Program-made: the position numbers and the translations under genes
Part shown: piece after piece, positions 5,289 through 64,000 of the stretch
How the letters are laid out: each line of letters begins with the position of its first letter
Position numbering within the stretch: position 1 is the stretch's first letter
Origin: an uncultured Flavobacteriales bacterium
Lineage (GTDB): Bacteria; Bacteroidota; Bacteroidia; CAIKAF01
Assembly: GCA_903825395.1 (NCBI GenBank)
Contig: CAIKAF010000003.1
Location: 1 to 64,000, forward strand
Direction of reading: 5' to 3'
Length of the DNA stretch: 64,000 nucleotides
The notes under the pieces: generated by a model
The model's database searches: none
What the model was told of the DNA's origin: nothing
Seen by the model: only the letters and a program-made list of their open reading frames with translations

Positions 5289-6239
5289 ATGAAAAAAACT
5301 ATTATTCTTTGTTCCGCTTTAAGTTTGGGGTTGGCTCTGAACGCCCAAACCAACATTCCAAACGGAAATGTGGAATCTTGGCAAACCTTTAATGACGTCA
5401 TGGGCCTGCCCTACGACGATTTAGGTCCTGATGCCGATCGGTCCAAAAATTTCTTGCGCACCCTCAATGCCATATTAGAAGCCCCATTAACCCAACAATC
5501 GGCGTATAAGGTTTCCGGAACCGGAGCCTACAGCGGGAATTCTGTTGTGGTGGCTACCAGTTTAGTGGCTGGAGCTATTTTGGTTCCTGGATATTTGGGG
5601 ACAGGCGACGTAGATATTGCCGCTGCTACCATTTATTTGGGTCGCCCGTTCACCGGTCGCCCTTCAGCCATGAAAGGCGTGTACAAATACGAGCCTGTGA
5701 ATGGCGATTCTGCAGCCTTTTATTGCTCCTTCAGTAAGTATGATGCCCTAAATCAAACTTCAAACACCATCGGCGAGGGTAATTTAGTGGTTACAAATGC
5801 TGTAACCGATTGGACTCCCTTTCAGGTACCCATCAATTTTAGCGGTAGCGATGCCCCTGATTCTGTGAATGTAATTATTGCGTCCAGTGCTGCCTACGAC
5901 TTGGTAAACCTTCAGGGTAGTGTTGGACAGGTAGGATCGGCTTTGTATTTGGATGATATTTCCTTTGAATTTCCAGCCTCGCTTGACGCGTATTCTGAAG
6001 TTAAGGCTCAGGTATTCCCAAATCCAAGCAGCGATTTTGTTCAGGTACGCTTAGAACAAGTTCAAGAAAAAATCCGCTTGAGATTGTATTCCACCGCCGG
6101 AAACCAAGTGCTTGAGGTTCTAGGAAACGGCAATGAAATTTCAGCTTCAGTGGCTGACCTGCCCGCCGGCAACTATGTATTGATGGTTCAAACTGATTTT
6201 CGTTTGTTGCATCGGTCCGTTGTTTCCATACAACATTGA
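5289..6239 (+). CDS. PCMD-like secreted protein with T9SS sorting domain
   Basis: 316 residues. A signal peptide (about 1-20, ending NAQ) is followed by a beta-rich domain with GRPFTGRPSAMKGVYKY and a late LYLDDISFEF strand, features of the putative carbohydrate metabolism (PCMD) family. From about residue 238 there is a type A T9SS C-terminal sorting domain (VFPNPSSDFVQV ... LPAGNYVLMV). The protein is therefore expected to cross the outer membrane through the type IX system and stay on the surface or be released. A strong terminator follows. The ligand is unknown. Confidence 0.85.
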   Translation: MKKTIILCSALSLGLALNAQTNIPNGNVESWQTFNDVMGLPYDDLGPDADRSKNFLRTLNAILEAPLTQQSAYKVSGTGAYSGNSVVVATSLVAGAILVPGYLGTGDVDIAAATIYLGRPFTGRPSAMKGVYKYEPVNGDSAAFYCSFSKYDALNQTSNTIGEGNLVVTNAVTDWTPFQVPINFSGSDAPDSVNVIIASSAAYDLVNLQGSVGQVGSALYLDDISFEFPASLDAYSEVKAQVFPNPSSDFVQVRLEQVQEKIRLRLYSTAGNQVLEVLGNGNEISASVADLPAGNYVLMVQTDFRLLHRSVVSIQH

Positions 6240-8007: not shown

Positions 8008-8564
8008 TGAACCCACCAATTTTTTTACTCTTCCTTTTGGTTTTGCTCTTGGGTTGCCGTGAAAATAACGGAGACAATGTAAACCCCAATTCCGATCTTC
8101 GTTCGGAACATTCCCTCAGTACAGATAGCCTGTATGCCTTAGCTATGCTCTCTTATGAAGCAGAAGATTTTTCCAAAGCCATTCAATACTTTGACGCATT
8201 ATTGCTTCAAGATAGCTTAGTTTCAGATGCTTGGCATGACAGGGGCTTATGTTATTACATGATAGAAAACTATCCGCAGGCAGAACAAGATGTTCGCACC
8301 TCCATGCGCCTAGATTCAACTTACGCTCCAGGTTGGCTTCAATTGGGTATGATTTATACCAAGACGCGCAAAACAGAAATGGCCTTAGCTGCCCTAAAAC
8401 AGAGCTTACAACTCGATTCAACATTGGCCCCAGCTTGGTTTGAAGAAGGAGCCATCTATATGGATTTAAAAAAAGTAAATGAGGCTTGTTTTCGGTTTCA
8501 AAAGGCAGCAAATTTGGGATATGAACCCGCAAAAAAGGCCTTAGCCCAGTTTTGTTATGAATAG
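8007..8564 (+). CDS. TPR-repeat lipoprotein
   Basis: 185 residues. A hydrophobic signal ends in lipobox LLLGC with Cys17, so it should be a lipoprotein. About residues 40-175 hold roughly four tetratricopeptide units (ALAMLSYEAEDFSKAIQYF, DAWHDRGLCYYMIENYPQAE, APGWLQLGMIYTKTRKTEMA, APAWFEEGAIYMDLKKVNEA). TPR lipoproteins of this size usually act as protein-protein scaffolds at the envelope. It overlaps the next gene by 8 nt. Confidence 0.8.
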   Translation: MNPPIFLLFLLVLLLGCRENNGDNVNPNSDLRSEHSLSTDSLYALAMLSYEAEDFSKAIQYFDALLLQDSLVSDAWHDRGLCYYMIENYPQAEQDVRTSMRLDSTYAPGWLQLGMIYTKTRKTEMALAALKQSLQLDSTLAPAWFEEGAIYMDLKKVNEACFRFQKAANLGYEPAKKALAQFCYE

Positions 8565-53956: not shown

Positions 53957-56900
53957 TTAAAATTTAAGTTGAACTCCACCCATAAAGGAACGGGCTTGAG
54001 GATAAAAACCATTGTCCACACCGGCGCTCAAAATCGAGGCCGAGGAAAATTCGGGATCAAACCCTTTATAGGCCGTAAACGTAAACGCATTGTTCACCGA
54101 ACCATAAATGCGAATGCCTTGAATTTTAAGTTTTGAAAGCCATTTTGCCGGAAAGCTGTATCCCAATTGAATGTTACGAACCCGTAAAAAAGAGGCATCT
54201 TCTACGAAATAGGAGGAAAAAATCGCATTTCGGGTAGGTTCGGTGGTTAGTCGGGGGTGTTCGTTGGTAGAACCGGGCCCTACCCAGCGGTCAATCACAT
54301 AATCCAATTGATTGGCAAAGGGCTGTTGGCGCTCGTAATTTCGAATGGCCTCCTGCCCTACTGCTGCATATAGGTTTAGGGACAAATCAAAACCTTTGAA
54401 TCCGGCATTCAGCATCAATCCCATCGTAAAATCAGGAATAGGTGAACCTAAAAAGGCTTTGTCTGAATCGTCATTAAAATTGATAACACCGTCTCCATTT
54501 TGATCGACAAAGATCAAATCACCGGGCTGAGCCCCATCCTGCTGAGGAGCATTATCAATTTGATCTTGGGTTTGGAACACCCCGTTGGTTTCAAATCCAA
54601 AGAAATAGCCGATGGGCTGACCCACCTGAAAACGGGTTGCCACATCGCCCCCCACTCCAAAGGCGGCTCCCGGAAGGTAATCGATGCCGACAGGAACCGA
54701 AAGCACTTCGTTGTGCACCATTCCGAAGGTGTATTTACCTGAAAATTGGAAGGGAGAGCGTACTGGAGTTTGGTAGGCCAGTTCCAGCTCAAACCCCCGG
54801 TTCAACACATCGCCGGCGTTGATTACCGGAGGGAATCCACCCGGACCGTAGGACCCAATTAAAGCCGACACATCGGGCTGGAACAACAAATTGGAGGTGC
54901 GTTTTTCGTACACATCCAAGGCCAATTGAAGCGTATTAAACAGAGACAAATCAACTCCCACATTCATTTGCAGGGTAGATTCCCATTTCAAATCCGGGTT
55001 GGCTGCAGTGCCAATAGCTACTCCAGAGGTAATTACATCGTCGAATACATAAACCCCTTCTCCATTCAACAACGCCCGGTAGGCGAAATTGGGAATTTGG
55101 TCGTTCCCCGACAACCCTACGCTGCTGCGTAATTTCAAGTAATCGATGAACGAACTGGAATAAAAAGCTTCGTCTGAAATTACCCAGGCTCCGGCGATGG
55201 TGGGGAACCAACCATAGCGGTTGTTCGGACCAAACTTGCTACTGCCATCGCGGCGCAGCAAGGCTGAAACCATATATTTTTCCTTGTAGGCGTATTCTAC
55301 GCGACCAAAGTAGGACAACAGGCGCTCGGTAAATTCCCAACTGAAGGTATTGTTTAAAAACCCGCCGGCAGCCGTATTGGCTGAAATATCAGCAAATTCC
55401 AAGGAATTGTTAGGAATTCCATAGGCAATACCCGACAGCGATTCGCCCTTGCGTTCAAACAAAGAAAATCCCAACAGCCCTTTCAATTTATGGTGTTCCG
55501 CAATGGTGGTTTCATAGTTCAAGAATCCTTCGTACGAAAGGTCGAGAAAGGAGGTGTTTTCTTCATACACTGCTGCTCCACGCTCCACCATAAAGCTGTC
55601 TGCAATGGCCACCATAGGCGATTCCAACTGTTCGTTGATGGCGGTATTGGCGAATTTGCCGGGACCGTACCATACCAGCGGGGAAAACACCTTATTCTGA
55701 AGGCTTGCATAATTGAAATTAAAGCGGTTGGTGAAGGTTAATCCCTTTAGAATATCAATTTCTACCTCTTCTTTGCCCACCCATTTCATGGTTTGTACGC
55801 CATTGTATTGGTTTTGAATTTGGGCGATGGGATTGATGATGTCGTTGACCTCTTCCAGGTACGAAAACCGACCGTCAGGAAGGCGCACCGGAGCTGTGGG
55901 AAAGGCATTAATGGTATTGTACAACACCGAACCAATACCATTCTCAGGAAGCGTTCTACGGAATTCACTTGAAAACAACAGCACAGAATTGAAGCGAACG
56001 CGCTTGGAAAGCACATGCGAGAAATTCAACCTGCCATTGTACCTTGAAAAATGCGATTTATTTCCCCCCACAATACCGTCTTGACTAAAATAGCCCAAGC
56101 CCATAGAATAGGTTGATTTTTCCGATCCGCCTTGGATGCCGAGTTGGTGCGATTGAATGGGTGCAGTAGAAAAAACACTGTCTTGCCAAGGCGTACCCAC
56201 TCCCACATTGGTATTGTTGAACGGAAGCGGCTGTCCGCCCATGGCAAACATTTCGTTTTTAATGACCGCGTATTCTTGAGCGTTCAGCAAGTTGAGTTGA
56301 CGAGCGGTTTGTTGAATTCCGGCATACCCGTCGTAACTAATGCGCATGGGAGCGCCCTTCTTGCCTTGCTTGGTGGTCACCAAAATTACTCCGTTTGCCG
56401 CTCGAACTCCATAAATACCGGCGGAAGCATCCTTCAACACCTGCACCGATTCAATGTCGGAAGGGTTCAGGGCATTTAATCCTTCTGAATCGTACACCAC
56501 CCCATCCACTAAAATCAAGGGGTCGTTGTCGCCAAAGGTAGATAAGCCTCGAATGCGAATGCTGGAAGAGCCTCCGGGGCTTCCTGAATTGGTGGTTACG
56601 GTAACTCCCGCCATTTGACCTTGCAAGGCCTGATCCATCCGCGATACGTTCAGCTTGGTTAAATCTTCTCCTTCTACTTGACTGGATGCGGCGGTCATCT
56701 CCTTGCGGGAAGAAGTTCCATACCCCACCATTTGATATTCCGACAGGCGCTGTACATCTTCTTGAAGCGTCACCTTTAAAAATTCAGAACCGCTGATGGG
56801 CAACGACTGCCGCTTAAAACCAATGGCGCTGAATTCCAGCGTAGCTGCCGAAGAATCGGAAAGGTTCAACTGGAAAATACCGTTTAAATCGGTTTGCGTT

Positions 56901-57046
56901 CCTGAGCCACTGCCTTTGGACACCACATTGACAAATGGAATGGGCTGACCTTTGGAATCGCTCACCAAACCCTTAATAACTTGGGCTGATAGGTTGGTCA
57001 TTAAAGGCAATGCAAGCAATGAAAATCCCAGTAGAAAACGAAACAT
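53957..57046 (-). CDS. SusC/RagA TonB-linked outer membrane transporter
   Basis: 1029 residues. Signal peptide (about 1-21), carboxypeptidase-regulatory-like domain (about 24-95), plug (about 105-230, with YGTSSRKEMTAASSQVEGEDL in pieces, GVTVTTNSGSPGGSSSIRIRG in pieces, and DASAGIYGVRAANGVILVTTKQG in pieces), then the beta-barrel ending GGVQLKF. It imports oligosaccharides with SusD. It is the first gene of susC-susD-PKD-GH16. Operator site 2 overlaps its promoter. Confidence 0.95.
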   Translation of the reverse strand: MFRFLLGFSLLALPLMTNLSAQVIKGLVSDSKGQPIPFVNVVSKGSGSGTQTDLNGIFQLNLSDSSAATLEFSAIGFKRQSLPISGSEFLKVTLQEDVQRLSEYQMVGYGTSSRKEMTAASSQVEGEDLTKLNVSRMDQALQGQMAGVTVTTNSGSPGGSSSIRIRGLSTFGDNDPLILVDGVVYDSEGLNALNPSDIESVQVLKDASAGIYGVRAANGVILVTTKQGKKGAPMRISYDGYAGIQQTARQLNLLNAQEYAVIKNEMFAMGGQPLPFNNTNVGVGTPWQDSVFSTAPIQSHQLGIQGGSEKSTYSMGLGYFSQDGIVGGNKSHFSRYNGRLNFSHVLSKRVRFNSVLLFSSEFRRTLPENGIGSVLYNTINAFPTAPVRLPDGRFSYLEEVNDIINPIAQIQNQYNGVQTMKWVGKEEVEIDILKGLTFTNRFNFNYASLQNKVFSPLVWYGPGKFANTAINEQLESPMVAIADSFMVERGAAVYEENTSFLDLSYEGFLNYETTIAEHHKLKGLLGFSLFERKGESLSGIAYGIPNNSLEFADISANTAAGGFLNNTFSWEFTERLLSYFGRVEYAYKEKYMVSALLRRDGSSKFGPNNRYGWFPTIAGAWVISDEAFYSSSFIDYLKLRSSVGLSGNDQIPNFAYRALLNGEGVYVFDDVITSGVAIGTAANPDLKWESTLQMNVGVDLSLFNTLQLALDVYEKRTSNLLFQPDVSALIGSYGPGGFPPVINAGDVLNRGFELELAYQTPVRSPFQFSGKYTFGMVHNEVLSVPVGIDYLPGAAFGVGGDVATRFQVGQPIGYFFGFETNGVFQTQDQIDNAPQQDGAQPGDLIFVDQNGDGVINFNDDSDKAFLGSPIPDFTMGLMLNAGFKGFDLSLNLYAAVGQEAIRNYERQQPFANQLDYVIDRWVGPGSTNEHPRLTTEPTRNAIFSSYFVEDASFLRVRNIQLGYSFPAKWLSKLKIQGIRIYGSVNNAFTFTAYKGFDPEFSSASILSAGVDNGFYPQARSFMGGVQLKF

Positions 57047-57063
57047 ACCTGAAGTTTAGAAGT

Positions 57064-57071
57064 CAAATATA
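57064..57071 (-). promoter_or_regulatory. -7 box TATATTTG of susC
   Basis: Perfect consensus on minus, 17 nt from the susC ATG. The operator overlaps its upstream edge; no -33 TTG. Confidence 0.5.
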
Positions 57072-57088
57072 GTATTTTTTACAATAAG
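57069..57088 (-). promoter_or_regulatory. Operator site 2 (susC)
   Basis: On minus: CTTATTGTAAAAAATACTAT, 23 nt before the susC ATG and overlapping the -7 box by 3 nt. It matches site 3 at 16 of 20 positions. Confidence 0.65.
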
Positions 57089-57123
57089 TTAATCCTGGGC
57101 TCATTTTCCATTAAAAAATAAGC

Positions 57124-57828
57124 TCAGAGCCACATATTGAATTCAAAACGACCTTCTTTTACCAAGGTCTTATACTTTTCCCAATCGAAGGAATACAGCG
57201 TTGCCGGGCGGTGTTTTACATTTTCCTGCCGTTCTTTCAGCTCGGTCAGCGGTAAATTTTTTATGCGCTTTCTGAAATTGGGTTTATCGATGCAAATGCC
57301 AAAGGCATATTCGTAGAGTTGCTGCAGCTCGTTCAAGGTAAACTTCAAGGGCAGCATTTCAAAGCAAATGGGCTCGTGAATAAAGCGTTCTTTTAGCCGC
57401 TGGTAGGTTGCCGTTAAAATTTCATTGTGGTCAAAGGCGAGCGATTCCACTTCATCGACAGGAACCCAGCGCAGTTCTTCCACCCAAGATGAAGGTTGGG
57501 GATTGGTTTCGTTCATGCGCACCATGGCCAGATAGGCATTGGTAATAACCCGGCCCTGAGGGTGTCGGTTCGGTTTTCCAAAAACCCCACCCTGCCGAAG
57601 CACCACATTTTTAAGTTCCGTCAGCTCTTCCAGAATGCGTTCAGCGGCATGGGGCAAATCTTCATCCGGATACACCAAATCGCCGGGAATAGCCCAATAT
57701 CCACCGTAGGGTTCCATGGCGCGTTTTACCAACAGAATGTGGATTTTTCCATTTGAAAAGCCAAAGATTAGGCAATCCATGGAAAAGGAGTAGGAAAAAA
57801 ACTGGTCAAATTTAATTTTATAGACCAT
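57124..57828 (-). CDS. NrtR-like Nudix-related transcriptional regulator
   Basis: 234 residues. An N-terminal Nudix fold (about 15-140) with GGYWAIPGDLVYPDED and AAERILEELTEL, where the first catalytic Glu of the Nudix box appears replaced by Asp, so catalysis is doubtful. The C-terminal part (about 145-234; FTLNELQQLYEYAFG, NFRKRIKNLPLTEL) is a winged helix. NrtR-type proteins use the Nudix fold to sense sugar- or nucleotide-derived ligands. It follows bglX by 9 nt, in the same operon, and probably binds the three operators in this locus. Confidence 0.85.
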   Translation of the reverse strand: MVYKIKFDQFFSYSFSMDCLIFGFSNGKIHILLVKRAMEPYGGYWAIPGDLVYPDEDLPHAAERILEELTELKNVVLRQGGVFGKPNRHPQGRVITNAYLAMVRMNETNPQPSSWVEELRWVPVDEVESLAFDHNEILTATYQRLKERFIHEPICFEMLPLKFTLNELQQLYEYAFGICIDKPNFRKRIKNLPLTELKERQENVKHRPATLYSFDWEKYKTLVKEGRFEFNMWL

Positions 57829-57837
57829 AGTAGGAAA

Positions 57838-60171
57838 TTAAGGTTCTAGGAACAGATTTAGGGTGGAATCAAACACCTGAAGGCGTATGGGGCCGCGCGA
57901 TTGTGTCCAGTTTCCGGAGTAATCTGCAAACTCAAATTGAGTTGCTGTTAAAGGAAAACGGAAGGATACTGCACTGCCCTGAGGCACCCACTTTTTTTGA
58001 AAATCAATCAAGTACTTGCCCCGTTGAGCAATGGGTAGGTTTCTTCGGCTCGCAAATACAGGCACACTGACCTGGCAAGGCCGGTCGGCATTGTGCCTAA
58101 GGCGCAGTTCAAGCCAAACCGTATCTGCGGCTCTTAAGGTATCGGCCGAGATGGAACTGGCATCGACCGTCCAGGAAGCGTAAGACATGCCTTGCCCAAA
58201 ATCCCAGGCCAGATTGTAGCCCTGCAAGGAATTGTCTTTCCCTATATTTTCGCTGTGGGCATGGTCGTAATGCTCCCAGCGGCCCGGATGCCTTGGATAG
58301 GTAAAGGGGAGGCGGCCGGAAAAATCAGCCGCGCCGTACATTTTATCCAAAAACGGCTGAGTAAAATGTTCGCCGGGCAAATAGGCATGTACAATGGCAT
58401 CGGCATCGTCTACGATGCTGCCCAGCAACTTGGGCCGTCCCAGCATAAGCACCACCACCACGCGTTTTCCGGCGGCCTTTAGCTCATGCACCAAATCCAT
58501 TTGGTTTTGAGTAACATAGGGATTCTCTTCGTCTCCCGGTTTTTCTGTTCCCGGCCATTCTGAAACAAACACCACGCACACGTCGGCCGATTCCAAGGCC
58601 TTTTTATGTTGAGCCGTCAATCCGGAACCGGTGCTGGGCAATCCGCTGGCTTCAGCCCAGGAACTGCCTGTAAGGTATTGAACCTGTCCTTGCTGCACTT
58701 CGGCCCGCCGTTGCCATTCCTTCAACAGCGAAATATCGGTTGAAAAATAACTGGAATCGCGGCCCTGCCACGTGTGCGTCCAGGCTCCATTCCAAAAGCG
58801 GCGGTCGGTAGCCGCTTGTCCCAACACCAGCACAGAAGAGTTGGATTGAAGAGGCAGGACTGAATTCTCATTTTTCAACAAGGTTAGCGACTCTGAAACC
58901 GCTTGTTTTGCTGCCGCTACAGATGATTCAGCCTGCAGCATAATCAAGGCTTGTTTGCTTTTTTTGCTGGGCATATCGAACAAACCTGCCGCCAACTTTA
59001 CCCGTAGAATGCGCTTCACCGCATCGTCAAGGCGGGCCATAGGCACACGGCCCTCCAACACCAATTCTTCCAGCAAGCGGCAGTATTCCTTGTATTGTGG
59101 ATTTAGGGGAACCATACTCATATCAATACCGGCATTGATGGCCATAGCGATGGCCTCTTTGTGCGAGGGGGCCACCTGATGCACCCGTTCCAAAAACAGA
59201 ATATCTTCCCAATCGGTGACGGCAAATCCTTTAAATCCCCACTGATTTTTCAAAACATCGGTAATTAAATGTGCATTGATGTGTCCCGGCATACCGTTCA
59301 GCGAAGCACTGTTGATCATCACTGTAAGGGCGCCGGCATCCACGGCCGACTTAAAAGGTGGCAGGTACAATTCGGTCAAATCTCGGGGAGAAATGATGGC
59401 CGGAGTTCGGTCTCGGCCGGAAGCCGGAGCACTGTAGCCCGCAAAATGCTTCATGCAGGCCAGCACTCGATTGGAAGCCAGCTTAGAGGCATTCAAATCG
59501 CCTTGGTACCCGGAAACAATGGCCGTTCCCAGAACAGAAGCCAGCTTGGGGTCTTCCCCCAGGGTTTCAAAAAAACGAGACCAAAGGGGTTGCCGCCCCA
59601 AATCCAATACCGGTGAAAAATTCCAAGGCACTCCGGACGAGCGGGTTTCCATGGCCGTAATTTCTCCGAATTGCCGGGCTACATCGGCATTAAACGTAGC
59701 CGCCAACCCAATTTCCTGAGGAAACAAAGTAGCTCCCAACACATAATTGGCTCCATGTATGGCATCAACTCCATATATAACAGGAACCGCAATTTCCTTT
59801 TTAAGGTAGGGTGCATGAATGGCTTGAATCAAATTCAGCCAGTCCAAGCGTGGAATGGCTCGGCCCGGTGCATTGAGGATGCTGCCCACATAATAAGTGC
59901 GCAGGGCCTCGTTCAGTTCTGCCGCATTCACTTGAAGCGGCAGGGGCAAGCTACCGTCGGAATTAAAGCGCAAAATCCCTTCCACCGTAATTTGGCAGGT
60001 CTGCCCTACCTTTTGTTTCAGCGACAGGGTTTTTAAAATCGCATCCGCCTGGGCATCAATCTCGGTCCAGTTTGTTTGAGTCTGAGCAGAAATAGGCCAC
60101 AGACCGCAGCAAACCAAAACCAGTAGGAAATTGAAGTTAAAATAAGACCGTTTGAATTGGAGTGTGGACAT
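57838..60171 (-). CDS. bglX: Beta-glucosidase, glycoside hydrolase family 3
   Basis: 777 residues from ATG 60171 (MSTLQFKRSYFNFNFLLVLV), which gives a clean signal peptide ending ISAQ; the frame extends 38 codons further across the operator. GH3 N-terminal barrel with VPVIYGVDAIHGANYV and the nucleophile Asp in GFAVTDWED, GH3 C-terminal sandwich (AVSESLTLLKNENSVLPL, VVVLMLGRPKLL) and a fibronectin-like end (about 680-777). It is periplasmic and releases glucose from beta-gluco-oligosaccharides. The downstream regulator gene follows after 9 nt. Confidence 0.93.
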   Translation of the reverse strand: MSTLQFKRSYFNFNFLLVLVCCGLWPISAQTQTNWTEIDAQADAILKTLSLKQKVGQTCQITVEGILRFNSDGSLPLPLQVNAAELNEALRTYYVGSILNAPGRAIPRLDWLNLIQAIHAPYLKKEIAVPVIYGVDAIHGANYVLGATLFPQEIGLAATFNADVARQFGEITAMETRSSGVPWNFSPVLDLGRQPLWSRFFETLGEDPKLASVLGTAIVSGYQGDLNASKLASNRVLACMKHFAGYSAPASGRDRTPAIISPRDLTELYLPPFKSAVDAGALTVMINSASLNGMPGHINAHLITDVLKNQWGFKGFAVTDWEDILFLERVHQVAPSHKEAIAMAINAGIDMSMVPLNPQYKEYCRLLEELVLEGRVPMARLDDAVKRILRVKLAAGLFDMPSKKSKQALIMLQAESSVAAAKQAVSESLTLLKNENSVLPLQSNSSVLVLGQAATDRRFWNGAWTHTWQGRDSSYFSTDISLLKEWQRRAEVQQGQVQYLTGSSWAEASGLPSTGSGLTAQHKKALESADVCVVFVSEWPGTEKPGDEENPYVTQNQMDLVHELKAAGKRVVVVLMLGRPKLLGSIVDDADAIVHAYLPGEHFTQPFLDKMYGAADFSGRLPFTYPRHPGRWEHYDHAHSENIGKDNSLQGYNLAWDFGQGMSYASWTVDASSISADTLRAADTVWLELRLRHNADRPCQVSVPVFASRRNLPIAQRGKYLIDFQKKWVPQGSAVSFRFPLTATQFEFADYSGNWTQSRGPIRLQVFDSTLNLFLEP

Positions 60172-60211
60172 TTTTGTAAATTTGGTCAAAACGAACCGAA
60201 AGGTACAAAGA

Positions 60212-60231
60212 CTTATTGTATTTAATACTAC
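60212..60231 (-). promoter_or_regulatory. Operator site 3 (bglX)
   Basis: On plus: CTTATTGTATTTAATACTAC, 41 nt upstream of bglX. The palindromic core TTGTATTTAATAC is shared with site 1. Sites 1 and 3 agree at 17 of 20 bases, in opposite orientation relative to their genes. Confidence 0.7.
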
Positions 60232-60304
60232 AACTAACCTGAAAAATTGAGGATTCGGTAGTTGGCAGATGAAGGTAAGGCACACGAATTAGGTATTGAG
60301 GATT

Positions 60305-60453
60305 GCGGCAGGGATTGCAACGGCAGTGAGTGCAGCCGGCCGCCGCAGGGACCGGGCTGGCAGGGCGACCAGCGGAAGCCATGCCGGCACGAAGTCCCTG
60401 CGGCGGCGGGCAAGCGAGCTACAGTGGAAAGCCCGCAGCCGCCCAAAAAAACA
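60305..60453 (-). repeat. GC-rich interspersed element, copy 6
   Basis: 149 bp, two mismatches against copy 5. Contains a perfect 14-bp stem, GCCGCCGCAGGGAC (60339-60352) with its complement at 60394-60407, enclosing an inner GCTGG/CCAGC stem, plus a flanking GCGGGC/GCCCGC hairpin. It lies between the divergent bglX and rpsF promoters, 6 nt before the rpsF -33 box. Confidence 0.85.
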
Positions 60454-60459
60454 CAGACC

Positions 60460-60490
60460 TTGCATTATTCAATAAAAAGCTCTATTTTTG
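60460..60490 (+). promoter_or_regulatory. rpsF operon promoter
   Basis: TTG at 60460-60462, exactly 20 nt, TATTTTTG at 60483-60490; 32 nt to ATG 60523. Confidence 0.75.
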
Positions 60491-60522
60491 CCGTCCAATT
60501 TTAAACGGAAAAACACATTTTC

Positions 60523-60861
60523 ATGAATCAGTACGAATCGATGTTCATCCTAACTCCAGTGTTAAGCGATGAGCAGCTTCGGGAGGCCGTTGAACGCTAC
60601 AGAACTTTGCTGAAGGACAACGGTTGTGAAGTCATCAATGACGAATCCTGGGGCCTACGCAAATTAGCTTACCCGATCCAAAAGAAATCGACCGGGTTTT
60701 ACCATCTGTTTGAATTTAAGGCCGATCCGGCTTTTATCGATCAGTTGGAACTTACCTATCGCCGCGACGAGCGCATCATTCGCTTTGGCACCTTCCGTCA
60801 GGATAAGCATGCCATGGCATACAGCGAAAAGCGTCGGGCCAAAAAATCAGCTAAATCTTAA
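60523..60861 (+). CDS. rpsF: 30S ribosomal protein S6
   Basis: 112 residues: [42 protein letters not shown] in pieces, and [20 protein letters not shown]6 binds 16S rRNA next to S18. It is the first gene of rpsF-rpsR-rplI, the standard order, and starts 32 nt from a good promoter. Confidence 0.97.
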
Positions 60862-60872
60862 TTTGCAAGTTC

Positions 60873-61169
60873 ATGAGCACTAACATTGACGTAAATCAAA
60901 AAGAGGGCAACCAAAGCGAAATTCGCTATTTGACTCCCCCACCCATCGAGGTCAGCAACAACAAGTATTGCCGGTTTAAAAAACTGGGAATCAAGTACAT
61001 TGATTACAAAGACCCCGATTATTTGCTGCGTTTGGTCAACGAACAGGGCAAAATTCTTCCCCGCCGCATTACCGGCACCTCTGTAAAATATCAGCGCAAA
61101 GTGGCTCAAGCGGTAAAACGCGCCCGCCACATGGCTCTGATGCCCTATGTTGCTGACCTATTAAAATAA
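60873..61169 (+). CDS. rpsR: 30S ribosomal protein S18
   Basis: 98 residues with [40 protein letters not shown] in pieces and [13 protein letters not shown], the conserved S18 core. It has an N-terminal extension of about 20 residues compared with E. coli. It follows rpsF by 11 nt. Confidence 0.97.
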
Positions 61170-61175
61170 GAAGTC

Positions 61176-61625
61176 ATGGAAATCATTTTAAAGAAAGACG
61201 TAGAACACGTTGGCTATGCCAATGAAATCGTGAAAGTTCGTCCGGGTTACGCCAGAAACTTCCTCATTCCATCGGGTTTGGCCGTATTGGCTACCGATTC
61301 TGCCCGCAAGGTGCATGCTGAAAACCTGCGTCAGCAGGCTCATAAAGCAGGTAAATTGTTGGCCGAGGCTCAGGAACTTGCGGCTCGCCTGTCGGAAAGC
61401 ATGGTGAAAGTGGGTGCCAAAGTGGGTAGTGATTCCGAAAAAATCTTTGGATCCATCAACACCATTATGTTGGCCGATTCCTTGACCAAAGCCGGTTATC
61501 CTGTAGAGCGTCGGCAGTTGAAAATCAAGGAAGATAACATTCGTACCATTGGAACCTATCAGGCTAGCGCCATGTTGCACAAAGAAGTCAGCGTGGAATT
61601 CAGCTTTGAGGTTGTGGCCGAATAA
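61176..61625 (+). CDS. rplI: 50S ribosomal protein L9
   Basis: 149 residues: MEIILKKDVEHVGYANEIV, VRPGYARNFLIPSGLA, a long connecting helix and a C-terminal domain with GSDSEKIFGSINTIMLAD. Last gene of the ribosomal operon; a strong terminator follows. Confidence 0.97.
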   Translation: MEIILKKDVEHVGYANEIVKVRPGYARNFLIPSGLAVLATDSARKVHAENLRQQAHKAGKLLAEAQELAARLSESMVKVGAKVGSDSEKIFGSINTIMLADSLTKAGYPVERRQLKIKEDNIRTIGTYQASAMLHKEVSVEFSFEVVAE

Positions 61626-61647
61626 GTCCATAAAAACAGCATTCACA

Positions 61648-61673
61648 AGGCACCTTCGGGTGCCTTTTTTTTT
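61648..61673 (+). terminator. Terminator of rpsF-rpsR-rplI
   Basis: 7-bp stem AGGCACC/GGTGCCT with a TTCG tetraloop and nine T. Confidence 0.92.
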
Positions 61674-61680
61674 ATCTTGA
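61673..61680 (+). promoter_or_regulatory. -7-like box TATCTTGA, 4 nt from xth ATG
   Basis: Two bases off TAnnTTTG but with the same 4-nt spacing to ATG 61685 as the leaderless candidates. It emerges directly from the terminator T-run. Confidence 0.3.
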
Positions 61681-61684
61681 GCCC

Positions 61685-62449
61685 ATGAAAATTATTTCCT
61701 ACAACGTTAACGGAATTCGTTCTGCCCTCAACAAAGGATTGTTGGATTGGCTGGCTGCGGAATCGCCCGATGTGCTCTGCCTGCAAGAGTTAAAAGCCAT
61801 GGAAGACCAAGTGGATTGGGCTCCGTTTCAGCGCATGGGCTACCACATTTACCTGAATCCGGCTCAGAAAAAGGGCTACAGCGGAGTGGGAATCCTTTCC
61901 AAGCAGCCGGCCGATCGGGTGGTTTGTGGTATGGGCATAGCCCATCACGATGCCGAGGGGCGGGTAATCCGGGCCGATTTTGGGGCATTGACCTTGGTGA
62001 GCGCCTACTTTCCCAGTGGGACTTCGGGCGAGGAGCGGCAAGACGTCAAGTATCAATTTTTATCGGACATGTCGGACTGGTCGGACCGGTTGAAATCGGA
62101 GCGGCCTCATACCGTATTGGTGGGCGATGTAAACATTTGCCATCGGGAGATGGACATCCACAATCCCATTTCGAACAAAAACAGCACCGGATTTTTGCCT
62201 GAGGAGCGGGCTTGGGTTGACTCCTTTTTGCGTGGGGGTTGGGTGGACAGTTTTCGGGCGCTGAATCCGGAGCTGCAGCAGTATTCCTGGTGGAGTTTTC
62301 GGGCCAATGCCCGGGCCAACAACAAGGGCTGGCGCATTGACTATCAGTTTGTTACTGAGGCCTTGTGGCCGCAGGTCAAGTCGGCCGCCTTGCTGCATGG
62401 GGCGCAGCATTCCGACCACTGCCCTACCCTGCTGGAGCTATCGGCTTAG
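61685..62449 (+). CDS. xth: Exodeoxyribonuclease III
   Basis: 254 residues of the exonuclease-endonuclease-phosphatase fold: MKIISYNVNGIRSALNKG, DVLCLQELKAMEDQ (metal Glu), YSGVGILSK, VLVGDVNICHREMDIHNP and a HSDHCPTLLEL ending with catalytic Asp-His. It is an AP endonuclease and 3' exonuclease in base excision repair. It has no terminator; the GC-rich element follows by 36 nt. Confidence 0.94.
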   Translation: MKIISYNVNGIRSALNKGLLDWLAAESPDVLCLQELKAMEDQVDWAPFQRMGYHIYLNPAQKKGYSGVGILSKQPADRVVCGMGIAHHDAEGRVIRADFGALTLVSAYFPSGTSGEERQDVKYQFLSDMSDWSDRLKSERPHTVLVGDVNICHREMDIHNPISNKNSTGFLPEERAWVDSFLRGGWVDSFRALNPELQQYSWWSFRANARANNKGWRIDYQFVTEALWPQVKSAALLHGAQHSDHCPTLLELSA

Positions 62450-62485
62450 GGGCAATACAAATAAAGACAATAGAATGGGGATACG

Positions 62486-62636
62486 TTGGGCGGCGGACGG
62501 GCTTTCACCGGTTGTCCGCGGTGGCCGGGCGGGCTGTTGGCGGGCTGCGGTGGCTCCCAAGGTCGCCTCCTCGCCGCGCCACAGCGGCCGCCGGCCCCCT
62601 TGCGGGCAACCCGGTTCAATCCCTGCCGCGGGCGGG
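62486..62636 (+). repeat. GC-rich interspersed element, copy 7
   Basis: Begins TTGGGCGGCGGACGGGCTTTC, ends CAATCCCTGCCGCGGGC, in xth's sense orientation. Close to copies 1 and 4. Confidence 0.75.
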
Positions 62637-63199
62637 TTTGAACCTTAAACCTGATTATTAAATACAGGCATCATTCAAGGTCCAACTTGAACATAATCAA
62701 GGATTTAATGGCGCTTCACTGCAATTGGAATTCAGTGAATCGGCTCTGCATCAGTGACTTGCAATCCATTTTTTTCATTTGAATTGAAAAATCATTTATA
62801 TTTGACCTATCCGACAGGTTGGGATGACCTTAGGTTAATTTTTTGGAAACGGAGGGCAGGGGTTCTGCCTTTATATTAGGAATAGTATGGATACTACAAT
62901 GCGTTGGCCTGCAATAACCGGGCGAAAAATACAGCGAACACAGCTTGCAAGGGCTTTTAACGCGAGCCTTGGAAAAGGTACGCCTTCTAATAAAATCCCA
63001 CGTTCTGCATTGGTTGAGGCACAGCTGGGCCAACCGTCGATTGAAATCGGGAACAGACTTCAGGTACATTCAAGAATAGTTGGGGCTCAGCATCAGCAAA
63101 ACCGCAGATTTACAGCCATGAAAACACCCAAAACCGATAGCAAATCAGGTTCCCGTTTGACGATTTGGCTGAATCCAGTTCACTCGATATCAGGAAACA
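62637..63199 (+). other. Gene-free stretch between xth and the SIR2 gene
   Basis: About 560 bp where I find no credible protein gene. It holds a -7-like TATATTTG at 62797-62804 with no -33 TTG, followed by no good ORF. Short ORFs on both strands (62887-63228 plus, 62830-63069 minus) have unstructured, low-complexity-like translations and no start context. It may be island-boundary DNA or an unrecognised RNA. Confidence 0.5.
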
Positions 63200-63241
63200 A
63201 ACCTTCGCCTATACAACCTATTTGGTAGATTGGCGAAGGTT
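63200..63241 (+). repeat. Perfect inverted repeat before the SIR2 gene
   Basis: AACCTTCGCC (63200-63209) and GGCGAAGGTT (63232-63241) form a 10-bp stem around a 22-nt loop that can itself pair ACC/GGT. No T-run follows, so it is not a standard terminator. It could be a recombination site or an RNA structure. Confidence 0.6.
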
Positions 63242-63320
63242 AATAGCGCCTATAAATGAGTTGTGCGTCATGCTAAAAAGACACTCGACAATGAGACAAA
63301 ACAAATAATTAAGACTTAAA

Positions 63321-64000
63321 ATGAAATTTGACAGGGAGATTGAATCATTTATTAATAATTATGTAAAAGCACTGAAAGAGAAAAATGCGGTTGCATTTAT
63401 TGGTGCAGGTATGTCGGTATCTCAAGGATTTTTTGACTGGAAAAAACTTCTAAAGCCGATTGCTGATAAACTCGGTCTTGACATAGATGAAGAACAACAT
63501 GATTTAACTTCATTAGCTCAATTTTTTGTTGATGACCACGGTGGTGTTCGTGGACAGCTCGACCAAATTCTTGTAGAAGAGTATGGTAAGACAACAATGA
63601 CAGTTTCTGAAAATCATAGAATTCTCGTAAGACTTCCTATTCAAATTTATTGGACTACGAACTATGACAGACTTATAGAAAAAGCCCTTTTGGAACAAGG
63701 AAAGACACCTGATATAAAAAAAGCACAATCTGATTTAACTGTTAATCTCCCAAAAAGAGATGCTATAATTTATAAGATGCACGGGGACATTGAAACTGTT
63801 TCAGAAACAGTTCTTACTAAGCACGAGTACGAAGACTATAATAAAAAAAGAGAGCTATTTAGTAATGCATTTAAAAGTGACTACGTTTCAAGAACTTTTT
63901 TATTCATTGGCTTTAGCTTCACAGACCCCAATCTAGACTATTTAATTAGTCGAATTAGAACTGTAACCACCCCATTTTTAGGACAGGGTTTAAATATACA
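63321..64000 (+). CDS. SIR2-family NADase-like defence protein (partial, 3' end outside)
   Basis: 226 residues visible from ATG 63321, with no stop before the window end. The NAD-binding FIGAGMS (residues 26-32), WTTNYDRLIEKAL with Asn114, KMHGDIE with the expected catalytic His154 and FIGFSFTDPNLDYLISRIR (195-213) define the SIR2_2-like fold. Such N-terminal domains in prokaryotic defence proteins (Thoeris ThsA, DSR, SIR2-HerA, SIR2-Argonaute) degrade NAD+ on phage infection. The C-terminal partner domain, which would name the system, is off the window. The gene is visibly richer in A and T than its neighbours, consistent with transfer. Confidence 0.85.
   Translation, partial: MKFDREIESFINNYVKALKEKNAVAFIGAGMSVSQGFFDWKKLLKPIADKLGLDIDEEQHDLTSLAQFFVDDHGGVRGQLDQILVEEYGKTTMTVSENHRILVRLPIQIYWTTNYDRLIEKALLEQGKTPDIKKAQSDLTVNLPKRDAIIYKMHGDIETVSETVLTKHEYEDYNKKRELFSNAFKSDYVSRTFLFIGFSFTDPNLDYLISRIRTVTTPFLGQGLNI

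What the first reader, a model, noticed from the sequence alone, without database searches (positions are those of the whole stretch)
63321..64000. Start of a probable anti-phage island: SIR2 NADase-like gene at the window edge
All SIR2 core motifs are present (GAGMS, TTNYD, MHGD, GFSFTDPN) in an AT-rich gene next to a gene-poor junction. The decisive C-terminal or neighbouring gene lies beyond 64000, so the system could be a known one (Thoeris, DSR, SIR2-HerA, SIR2-APAZ/Argonaute) or new.
Basis: partly seen in the sequence, partly recalled or inferred. Interest (0 to 1): 0.6.

Follow-up and report, generated by a model that had tools for sequence, protein, structure and literature searches.

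The report
IS-broken Thoeris gene in integron-like cassette
The gene at the window edge is the front part of a known anti-phage gene (thsA of Thoeris) that a jumping element has cut in two, so it is a dead remnant; it sits as the first cassette of an integron-like gene-capture site that elsewhere in this bacterial family carries other phage-defence genes.

Summary
The SIR2 gene is real: it is the first 213 codons of thsA, the NADase effector of the Thoeris anti-phage system (PADLOC ThsA E=3e-90; catalytic Asn/His present; 92% identical to intact 475-aa relatives followed by thsB). It is broken. From 63962 the sequence is the terminal repeat of an IS3-like element; the contig ends at 64101, the frame stops after 16 foreign codons, and no other ThsA sequence was found in the genome. 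A thsB tail, cut by the other end of the same kind of element, opens contig C1. A same-genus genome shows the two contigs were adjacent. So this is a Thoeris remnant, not an active or new system.

The "gene-poor junction" holds a decayed tyrosine-recombinase 3' end (62921-63167) and an attI-like site. Homology to relatives' thsA begins exactly at the predicted cassette edge (63260), and the complementary edge follows thsB. thsAB was therefore the first cassette of an integron-like array. Intact versions of the recombinase in related genera lack the insertion that defines IntI and have other defence genes as first cassettes (Zorya II, McrB-like). The broken gene is ordinary; the platform deserves follow-up.

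The parts
61685..62449 (+). xth-like exonuclease III gene: conserved host gene at the left edge of the insertion
   Evidence: synteny in G001 and G005
62486..62634 (.). GC-rich repeated intergenic element in native spacer (spacer aligns to G005 up to 62645)
62921..63167 (+). Decayed 3' end of an integron-like (Xer-type) tyrosine recombinase gene; in-frame stop and frameshift
   Evidence: 59% identity to G005:C29 recombinase, E=3e-19
63168..63259 (+). attI-like site: block shared by about 18 loci in the genus and family, ending at GA|GTT
63260..63268 (+). Cassette edge GTTGTGCGT; homology to L020/L021 starts here; exact complement follows thsB on contig C1 (C1:473-481)
63321..63961 (+). thsA 5' fragment (213 codons plus 2 bases) of a Thoeris SIR2-STALD NADase; Asn114 and His154 present
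63962..64000 (+). Right terminal repeat of an IS3-like element; continues to the contig end at 64101

Best explanation
The feature is the 5' 641 bp of a thsA gene (Thoeris SIR2-STALD NADase), truncated by an IS3-like element. The original unit was a thsA-thsB cassette. In a working system, ThsB (TIR) senses phage and makes a cyclic ADP-ribose signal that binds the ThsA STALD domain and turns on SIR2 NAD+ cleavage (established for Thoeris; not tested here). In this genome thsA has lost the end of its SIR2 domain and the whole STALD sensor, and thsB has lost its first 54 codons, so no inducible NADase should be made. The broken cassette sits first after an attI-like site and a dead recombinase gene, so it arrived by integron-like cassette capture and was later cut, probably by two same-orientation IS insertions followed by loss of the roughly 950 bp between them. 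Shown: truncation, IS end, thsB tail, contig adjacency, cassette edges. Inferred: the order of events, loss of function, and that capture was catalysed by the recombinase family whose remnant lies next to it.
For: ThsA identity. Intact 92% relatives (475 aa, SIR2+STALD, then thsB). Homology ends at 63961 and the IS repeat starts at 63962. Frame stop after 230 codons. No ThsA C-terminus found in own genome. thsB tail (residues 55-159; ThsB_TIR E=2.3e-15) next to the other IS end at C1:142-466. C3 end and C1 start adjacent in G005 (281-bp spacer between xth and the C1:7058-8008 homologue). No target duplication between the C3 and C1 flanks (GAAC against GATT), while two other copies show 4-bp duplications. 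dN about 0.05 with dS saturated against relatives, so the gene was under strong selection until recently. Cassette edges. Recombinase remnant.
Against: The piece between the two IS ends could survive on a short contig left out of the assembly, as the IS interior itself appears to be; then nothing was deleted, though both genes would still be split. The thsB tail is only 62% identical to the L020 ThsB against 92% for ThsA, so it may be a second or diverged thsB. The 230-codon product could in principle retain some activity. Strain mixture in the assembled genome cannot be excluded.
Confidence: 0.88

Rival explanations
1. Intact Thoeris in the living organism: the thsA break is an assembly artefact or a minority variant, and the middle of the system lies on unassembled sequence.
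For: The genome is in 33 contigs that break at this repeat; the IS interior is also missing, so short contigs were probably left out.
Against: The break falls exactly at the IS terminal repeat; the thsB tail is cut by the opposite end of the same kind of element in the matching orientation; other copies show normal 4-bp target duplications, so the element really inserts in this genome.
Confidence: 0.06
2. The C1 thsB tail belongs to a different, unrelated Thoeris copy, and C3 ends in an insertion whose partner contig is another one.
For: ThsB is 62% and ThsA 92% identical to L020; the flanks share no target duplication.
Against: G005 synteny joins C3 to C1; the cassette edges on C3 and C1 are exact 9-base complements; thsA was found only once in the genome.
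Confidence: 0.04
3. The truncated 230-aa SIR2 protein is a functional stand-alone NADase or a dominant regulator.
For: Both catalytic residues and all the motifs named are kept.
Against: BcThsA's SIR2-like domain spans residues 1-283 (PMC7272460), so about 70 residues of the catalytic domain are gone; the 16-codon tail is IS sequence.
Confidence: 0.03
4. The region is not an integron-like array; the attI-like and attC-like features are chance or belong to another kind of repeat.
For: The recombinase lacks the IntI-specific insertion and scores below the IntI cut-off; no recombination was tested; 6 of 16 loci show no complementary edge.
Against: 10 of 16 loci with exact 9-mer complements against 39 of 1584 control 9-mers; homology to relatives starts exactly at the edge; attC-like hairpins; the blaVEB edge coincides with where VEB homology starts in other plasmids.
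Confidence: 0.12

Closest known systems
Thoeris type I (ThsA SIR2-STALD + ThsB TIR), e.g. Bacillus cereus ThsA, PDB 6LHX
   Same: SIR2 N-terminal sequence with the Asn112/His152 equivalents; close relatives have STALD and adjacent thsB
   Different: Here cut at codon 213; the STALD domain and the 5' part of thsB are missing
Chromosomal integron / CALIN with defence cassettes
   Same: G|TT edge after an attI-like site, complementary AAC edge and hairpin after the last gene, multi-gene cassettes
   Different: The recombinase family beside these sites lacks the IntI-specific insertion (22 residues where V. cholerae IntI, 2A3V, has 64) and scores below the IntI cut-off; the local copy is dead
IS3-family insertion sequences
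   Same: TGT...ACA terminal repeats, 4-bp target duplications, HTH_Tnp_1 OrfA start
   Different: The interior (OrfB) was not seen in the assembly, so family assignment rests on the ends and OrfA only

Membership tests
Thoeris (type I) | ThsA with SIR2 NADase domain, catalytic Asn and His | tested here: met
   residues from PMC7272460. The domain is incomplete at its C-terminal end
Thoeris (type I) | STALD (SLOG) sensor domain in ThsA | tested here: not met
   Absent in the window gene; present in the 92% relatives (PF18185 E=4e-73); own-genome searches found none. Hence filed as a remnant, not a system
Thoeris (type I) | Adjacent thsB (TIR) gene | tested here: inconclusive
   Only a 3' thsB tail across the IS; adjacency inferred from synteny and cassette edges
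Thoeris (type I) | Signal-dependent NAD+ depletion and phage protection | not testable with these tools
   Needs bench work
Integron | Cassettes bounded by complementary edges (GTT... / ...AAC) with a hairpin | tested here: met
   Own cassette: exact 9-mer complement; 10 of 16 attI-like loci against 39 of 1584 control 9-mers; hairpins
Integron | attI site next to the integrase gene | tested here: met
   Conserved block after the recombinase 3' end, divergence at GA|GTT
Integron | IntI integrase with the specific additional domain (I2) | tested here: not met
   The intact family member tested lacks about 42 residues there and three members score below the TIGR02249 cut-off, split in two stretches; the local copy is a 3' remnant
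Integron | Recombination activity on attC | not testable with these tools
   Needs an assay
IS3 family | Terminal inverted repeats, 3-5 bp target duplication, OrfA/OrfB transposase | tested here: inconclusive
   Ends and 4-bp duplications met, OrfA start met; OrfB not seen in the assembly
DSR / SIR2-APAZ-Argonaute / other SIR2 defence | Better profile match or partner gene of that system | tested here: not met
   The ThsA model leads by more than 200 bits; the partner remnant is ThsB

The most novel reading that the evidence does not exclude
This Bacteroidota family carries an integron-like platform run by a Xer-type recombinase without the IntI-specific domain. It captures attC-type cassettes at an attI just after the recombinase gene and holds whole multi-gene anti-phage systems (Thoeris, Zorya II, McrB-like, PRTase-CE/NADAR). 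Integron finders that require the IntI domain would miss it.
Probability: 0.5. Interest if true: 0.75.

Novelty: new variant of a known kind. Interest (0 to 1): 0.45.

Why it matters
The broken gene itself is ordinary: a known defence effector inactivated by a mobile element. The context matters more. A whole Thoeris system appears to have moved as one cassette in Bacteroidota, where the IntegronFinder 2.0 survey reported almost no complete integrons (PMC9024848). If the domain-less recombinase really moves attC cassettes, it bears on the view that the I2 helix is what allows recombination of folded attC sites (PMC7790495), and it would point to an overlooked reservoir of mobile defence genes.

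Tried and rejected
Extending the gene to the right: impossible, the contig ends at 64101 inside the IS. Pairing C3 with C1 by target-site duplication failed (no match) and was replaced by synteny with G005. The 62887-63228 ORF was considered as a gene: no Pfam hit, and it overlaps the recombinase remnant. tRNA-associated insertion: no tRNA found in 55000-64000. A phage origin for thsA: only one distant phage hit, 29% identity. The first count of cassette edges misplaced three cores and was redone with controls. Two further attI-like blocks in the own genome (C18, C30) gave no clear cassette edge, and the Chryseobacterium plasmid edges were ambiguous. Literature searches found no paper describing Thoeris as an integron cassette or this recombinase/cassette pairing; [quoted passage not shown]

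Full report
Observation. Its best profile match is ThsA of Thoeris, E=3.1e-90 and 301 bits, against 78 bits for the next system; Pfam gives SIR2_2 at 1.2e-27. Its best solved relatives are ThsA structures (6LHX E=1.6e-69). The residues equivalent to B. cereus ThsA Asn112 and His152, both needed for NAD+ cleavage (PMC7272460; the authors note that the His mutant also disturbs oligomerisation), are Asn114 and His154.

The gene is cut. Own-genome search showed that the last ~40 bases of the queried segment recur, mostly at contig ends. Contig C3 ends at 64101, and its last 140 bases (63962-64101) occur at seven other places in the genome at 98-100% identity. The repeat begins TGTAACCACCCC; the opposite end of the element precedes a transposase OrfA start, MKKSKFTETQIAHALKEY... 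(HTH_Tnp_1). Two element copies show 4-bp target duplications, C8/C19 CAAC and C9/C5 AAAG. Alignment of thsA to intact relatives stops at 63961. The hybrid frame ends after 230 codons.

What it looked like before. Three public Bacteroidota contigs hold 92%-identical ThsA. There it is a 475-aa SIR2-STALD protein followed by ThsB (162 aa in L020 and L021, where a second, 125-aa TIR gene follows). Against these, dN is about 0.05 with saturated dS, so the gene was under strong purifying selection until recently. ThsA was not found in the other 15 genomes of the order.

The other half. Searches of the own genome found no ThsA C-terminus but did find ThsB residues 55-159 at C1:143-457, directly after the left end of the same kind of IS. 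In same-genus genome G005 the xth gene at the end of C3 is followed, 281 bp on, by the homologue of C1:7058-8008, and the order continues along C1. C3 and C1 were therefore neighbours, and the region between window 62646 and C1:7053 is an insertion. The flanks GAAC (C3) and GATT (C1) do not match. This fits two insertions with loss of about 950 bp between them (by the L020 layout), or an unassembled short segment; the data do not separate these.

The junction. The integron-integrase model TIGR02249 hit C3:62936-63106 with one stop codon. Comparison with an intact recombinase of G005 shows that window 62921-63167 is its decayed 3' end, E=3e-19, with a stop and a frameshift. Aligning about 18 such 3' ends from the genus and family shows a shared non-coding block after the stop, ending at GA|GTT, beyond which the sequences differ. 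The window's GTT lies at 63260, exactly where homology to L020/L021 begins (63260 = L020:5956).

Cassette test. In an integron cassette the first bases after the G|TT point are complementary to the bases just before the hairpin of the same cassette's attC (established knowledge). For the window cassette, GTTGTGCGT at 63260 has its exact complement ACGCACAAC just after the thsB stop on C1; this also ties the two contigs together independently of synteny. In L020 the pair is GTTATGCC at 5956 and GGCATAAC at 8328, after the third gene. Over 16 attI-like loci, 10 have the exact 9-mer complement downstream, against 39 of 1584 control 9-mers. Hairpins of attC type follow several of the edges. An outside check came from plasmids: in Klebsiella a fragment of a related recombinase precedes blaVEB-3, the predicted edge is query base 260, and in most of the other listed plasmids VEB homology begins at 257-268.

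The recombinase. The intact proteins in G005, G013 and G010 score below the IntI cut-off. The G005 protein aligns to archaeal XerA-type recombinases without a large break, but to V. cholerae IntI (2A3V) only in two pieces, with 22 residues in place of 64. That gap covers the region of the IntI-specific domain (its location is from established knowledge; its role from PMC7790495). First cassettes at these sites include Zorya II genes (L114), a McrB-like AAA protein (L117) and PRTase-CE plus NADAR (L116). Whether the recombinase moves the cassettes is inferred, not shown.

Conclusion. The finding is a Thoeris effector fragment, inactivated by an IS, in a decayed integron-like array. Thoeris is known and the broken copy is ordinary. 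Integrons carrying defence systems are also known from Proteobacteria (own knowledge; citing papers were listed but not read). The Bacteroidota platform with a domain-less recombinase is the reason for a middle interest score.

Noticed in passing
L100:1709-2830 (-), L116:2631-3695 (-), L117:3279-4316 (+), L120, L121: Xer-type recombinase family lacking the IntI insertion, with attI-like sites and attC-type cassettes directly downstream in three genera (L100, L116, L117); related recombinases also on Chryseobacterium plasmids, where cassette edges were not clear.
   Followed up: partly
L106-L115 (genomes G002 and G004): Many dispersed copies of only the last ~59 codons of the recombinase plus the attI-like block, each followed by different genes; most share the same left boundary near codon 317. 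Looks like multiple scattered landing sites.
   Followed up: partly
L114:239-2541, L117:4614-7742, L116:509-2498: First cassettes at attI-like sites carry Zorya II genes (ZorA-like, ZorB, ZorE), a McrB-like AAA gene set, and PRTase-CE with NADAR.
   Followed up: partly
L032:607-2300, L032:3268-4960, L016:3124-3190: A DUF772/DDE transposase element (IS1182-like) lies at a cassette boundary in all three cases seen, its right end just before GTT; possibly it targets attC sites.
   Followed up: partly
L122:4133-5754: Klebsiella plasmids carry a fragment of a related recombinase and an attI-like edge right before blaVEB-3; the edge coincides with where VEB homology begins in most other listed plasmids.
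   Followed up: partly
L032:4990-6012: RhuM-Fic protein (PADLOC candidate PDC-S23, E=3e-116) as another cassette in the same array.
   Followed up: partly
L022:7006-7531: thsB appears split by a short tandem duplication in this low-coverage contig; probably an assembly artefact.
   Followed up: no
window 62486-62634: GC-rich ~150-bp intergenic repeat with many copies in this genome and genus, several near IS or cassette sites.
   Followed up: no
L020:7915-8292: Second small TIR/ThsB-like gene inside the relatives' Thoeris cassette.
   Followed up: no
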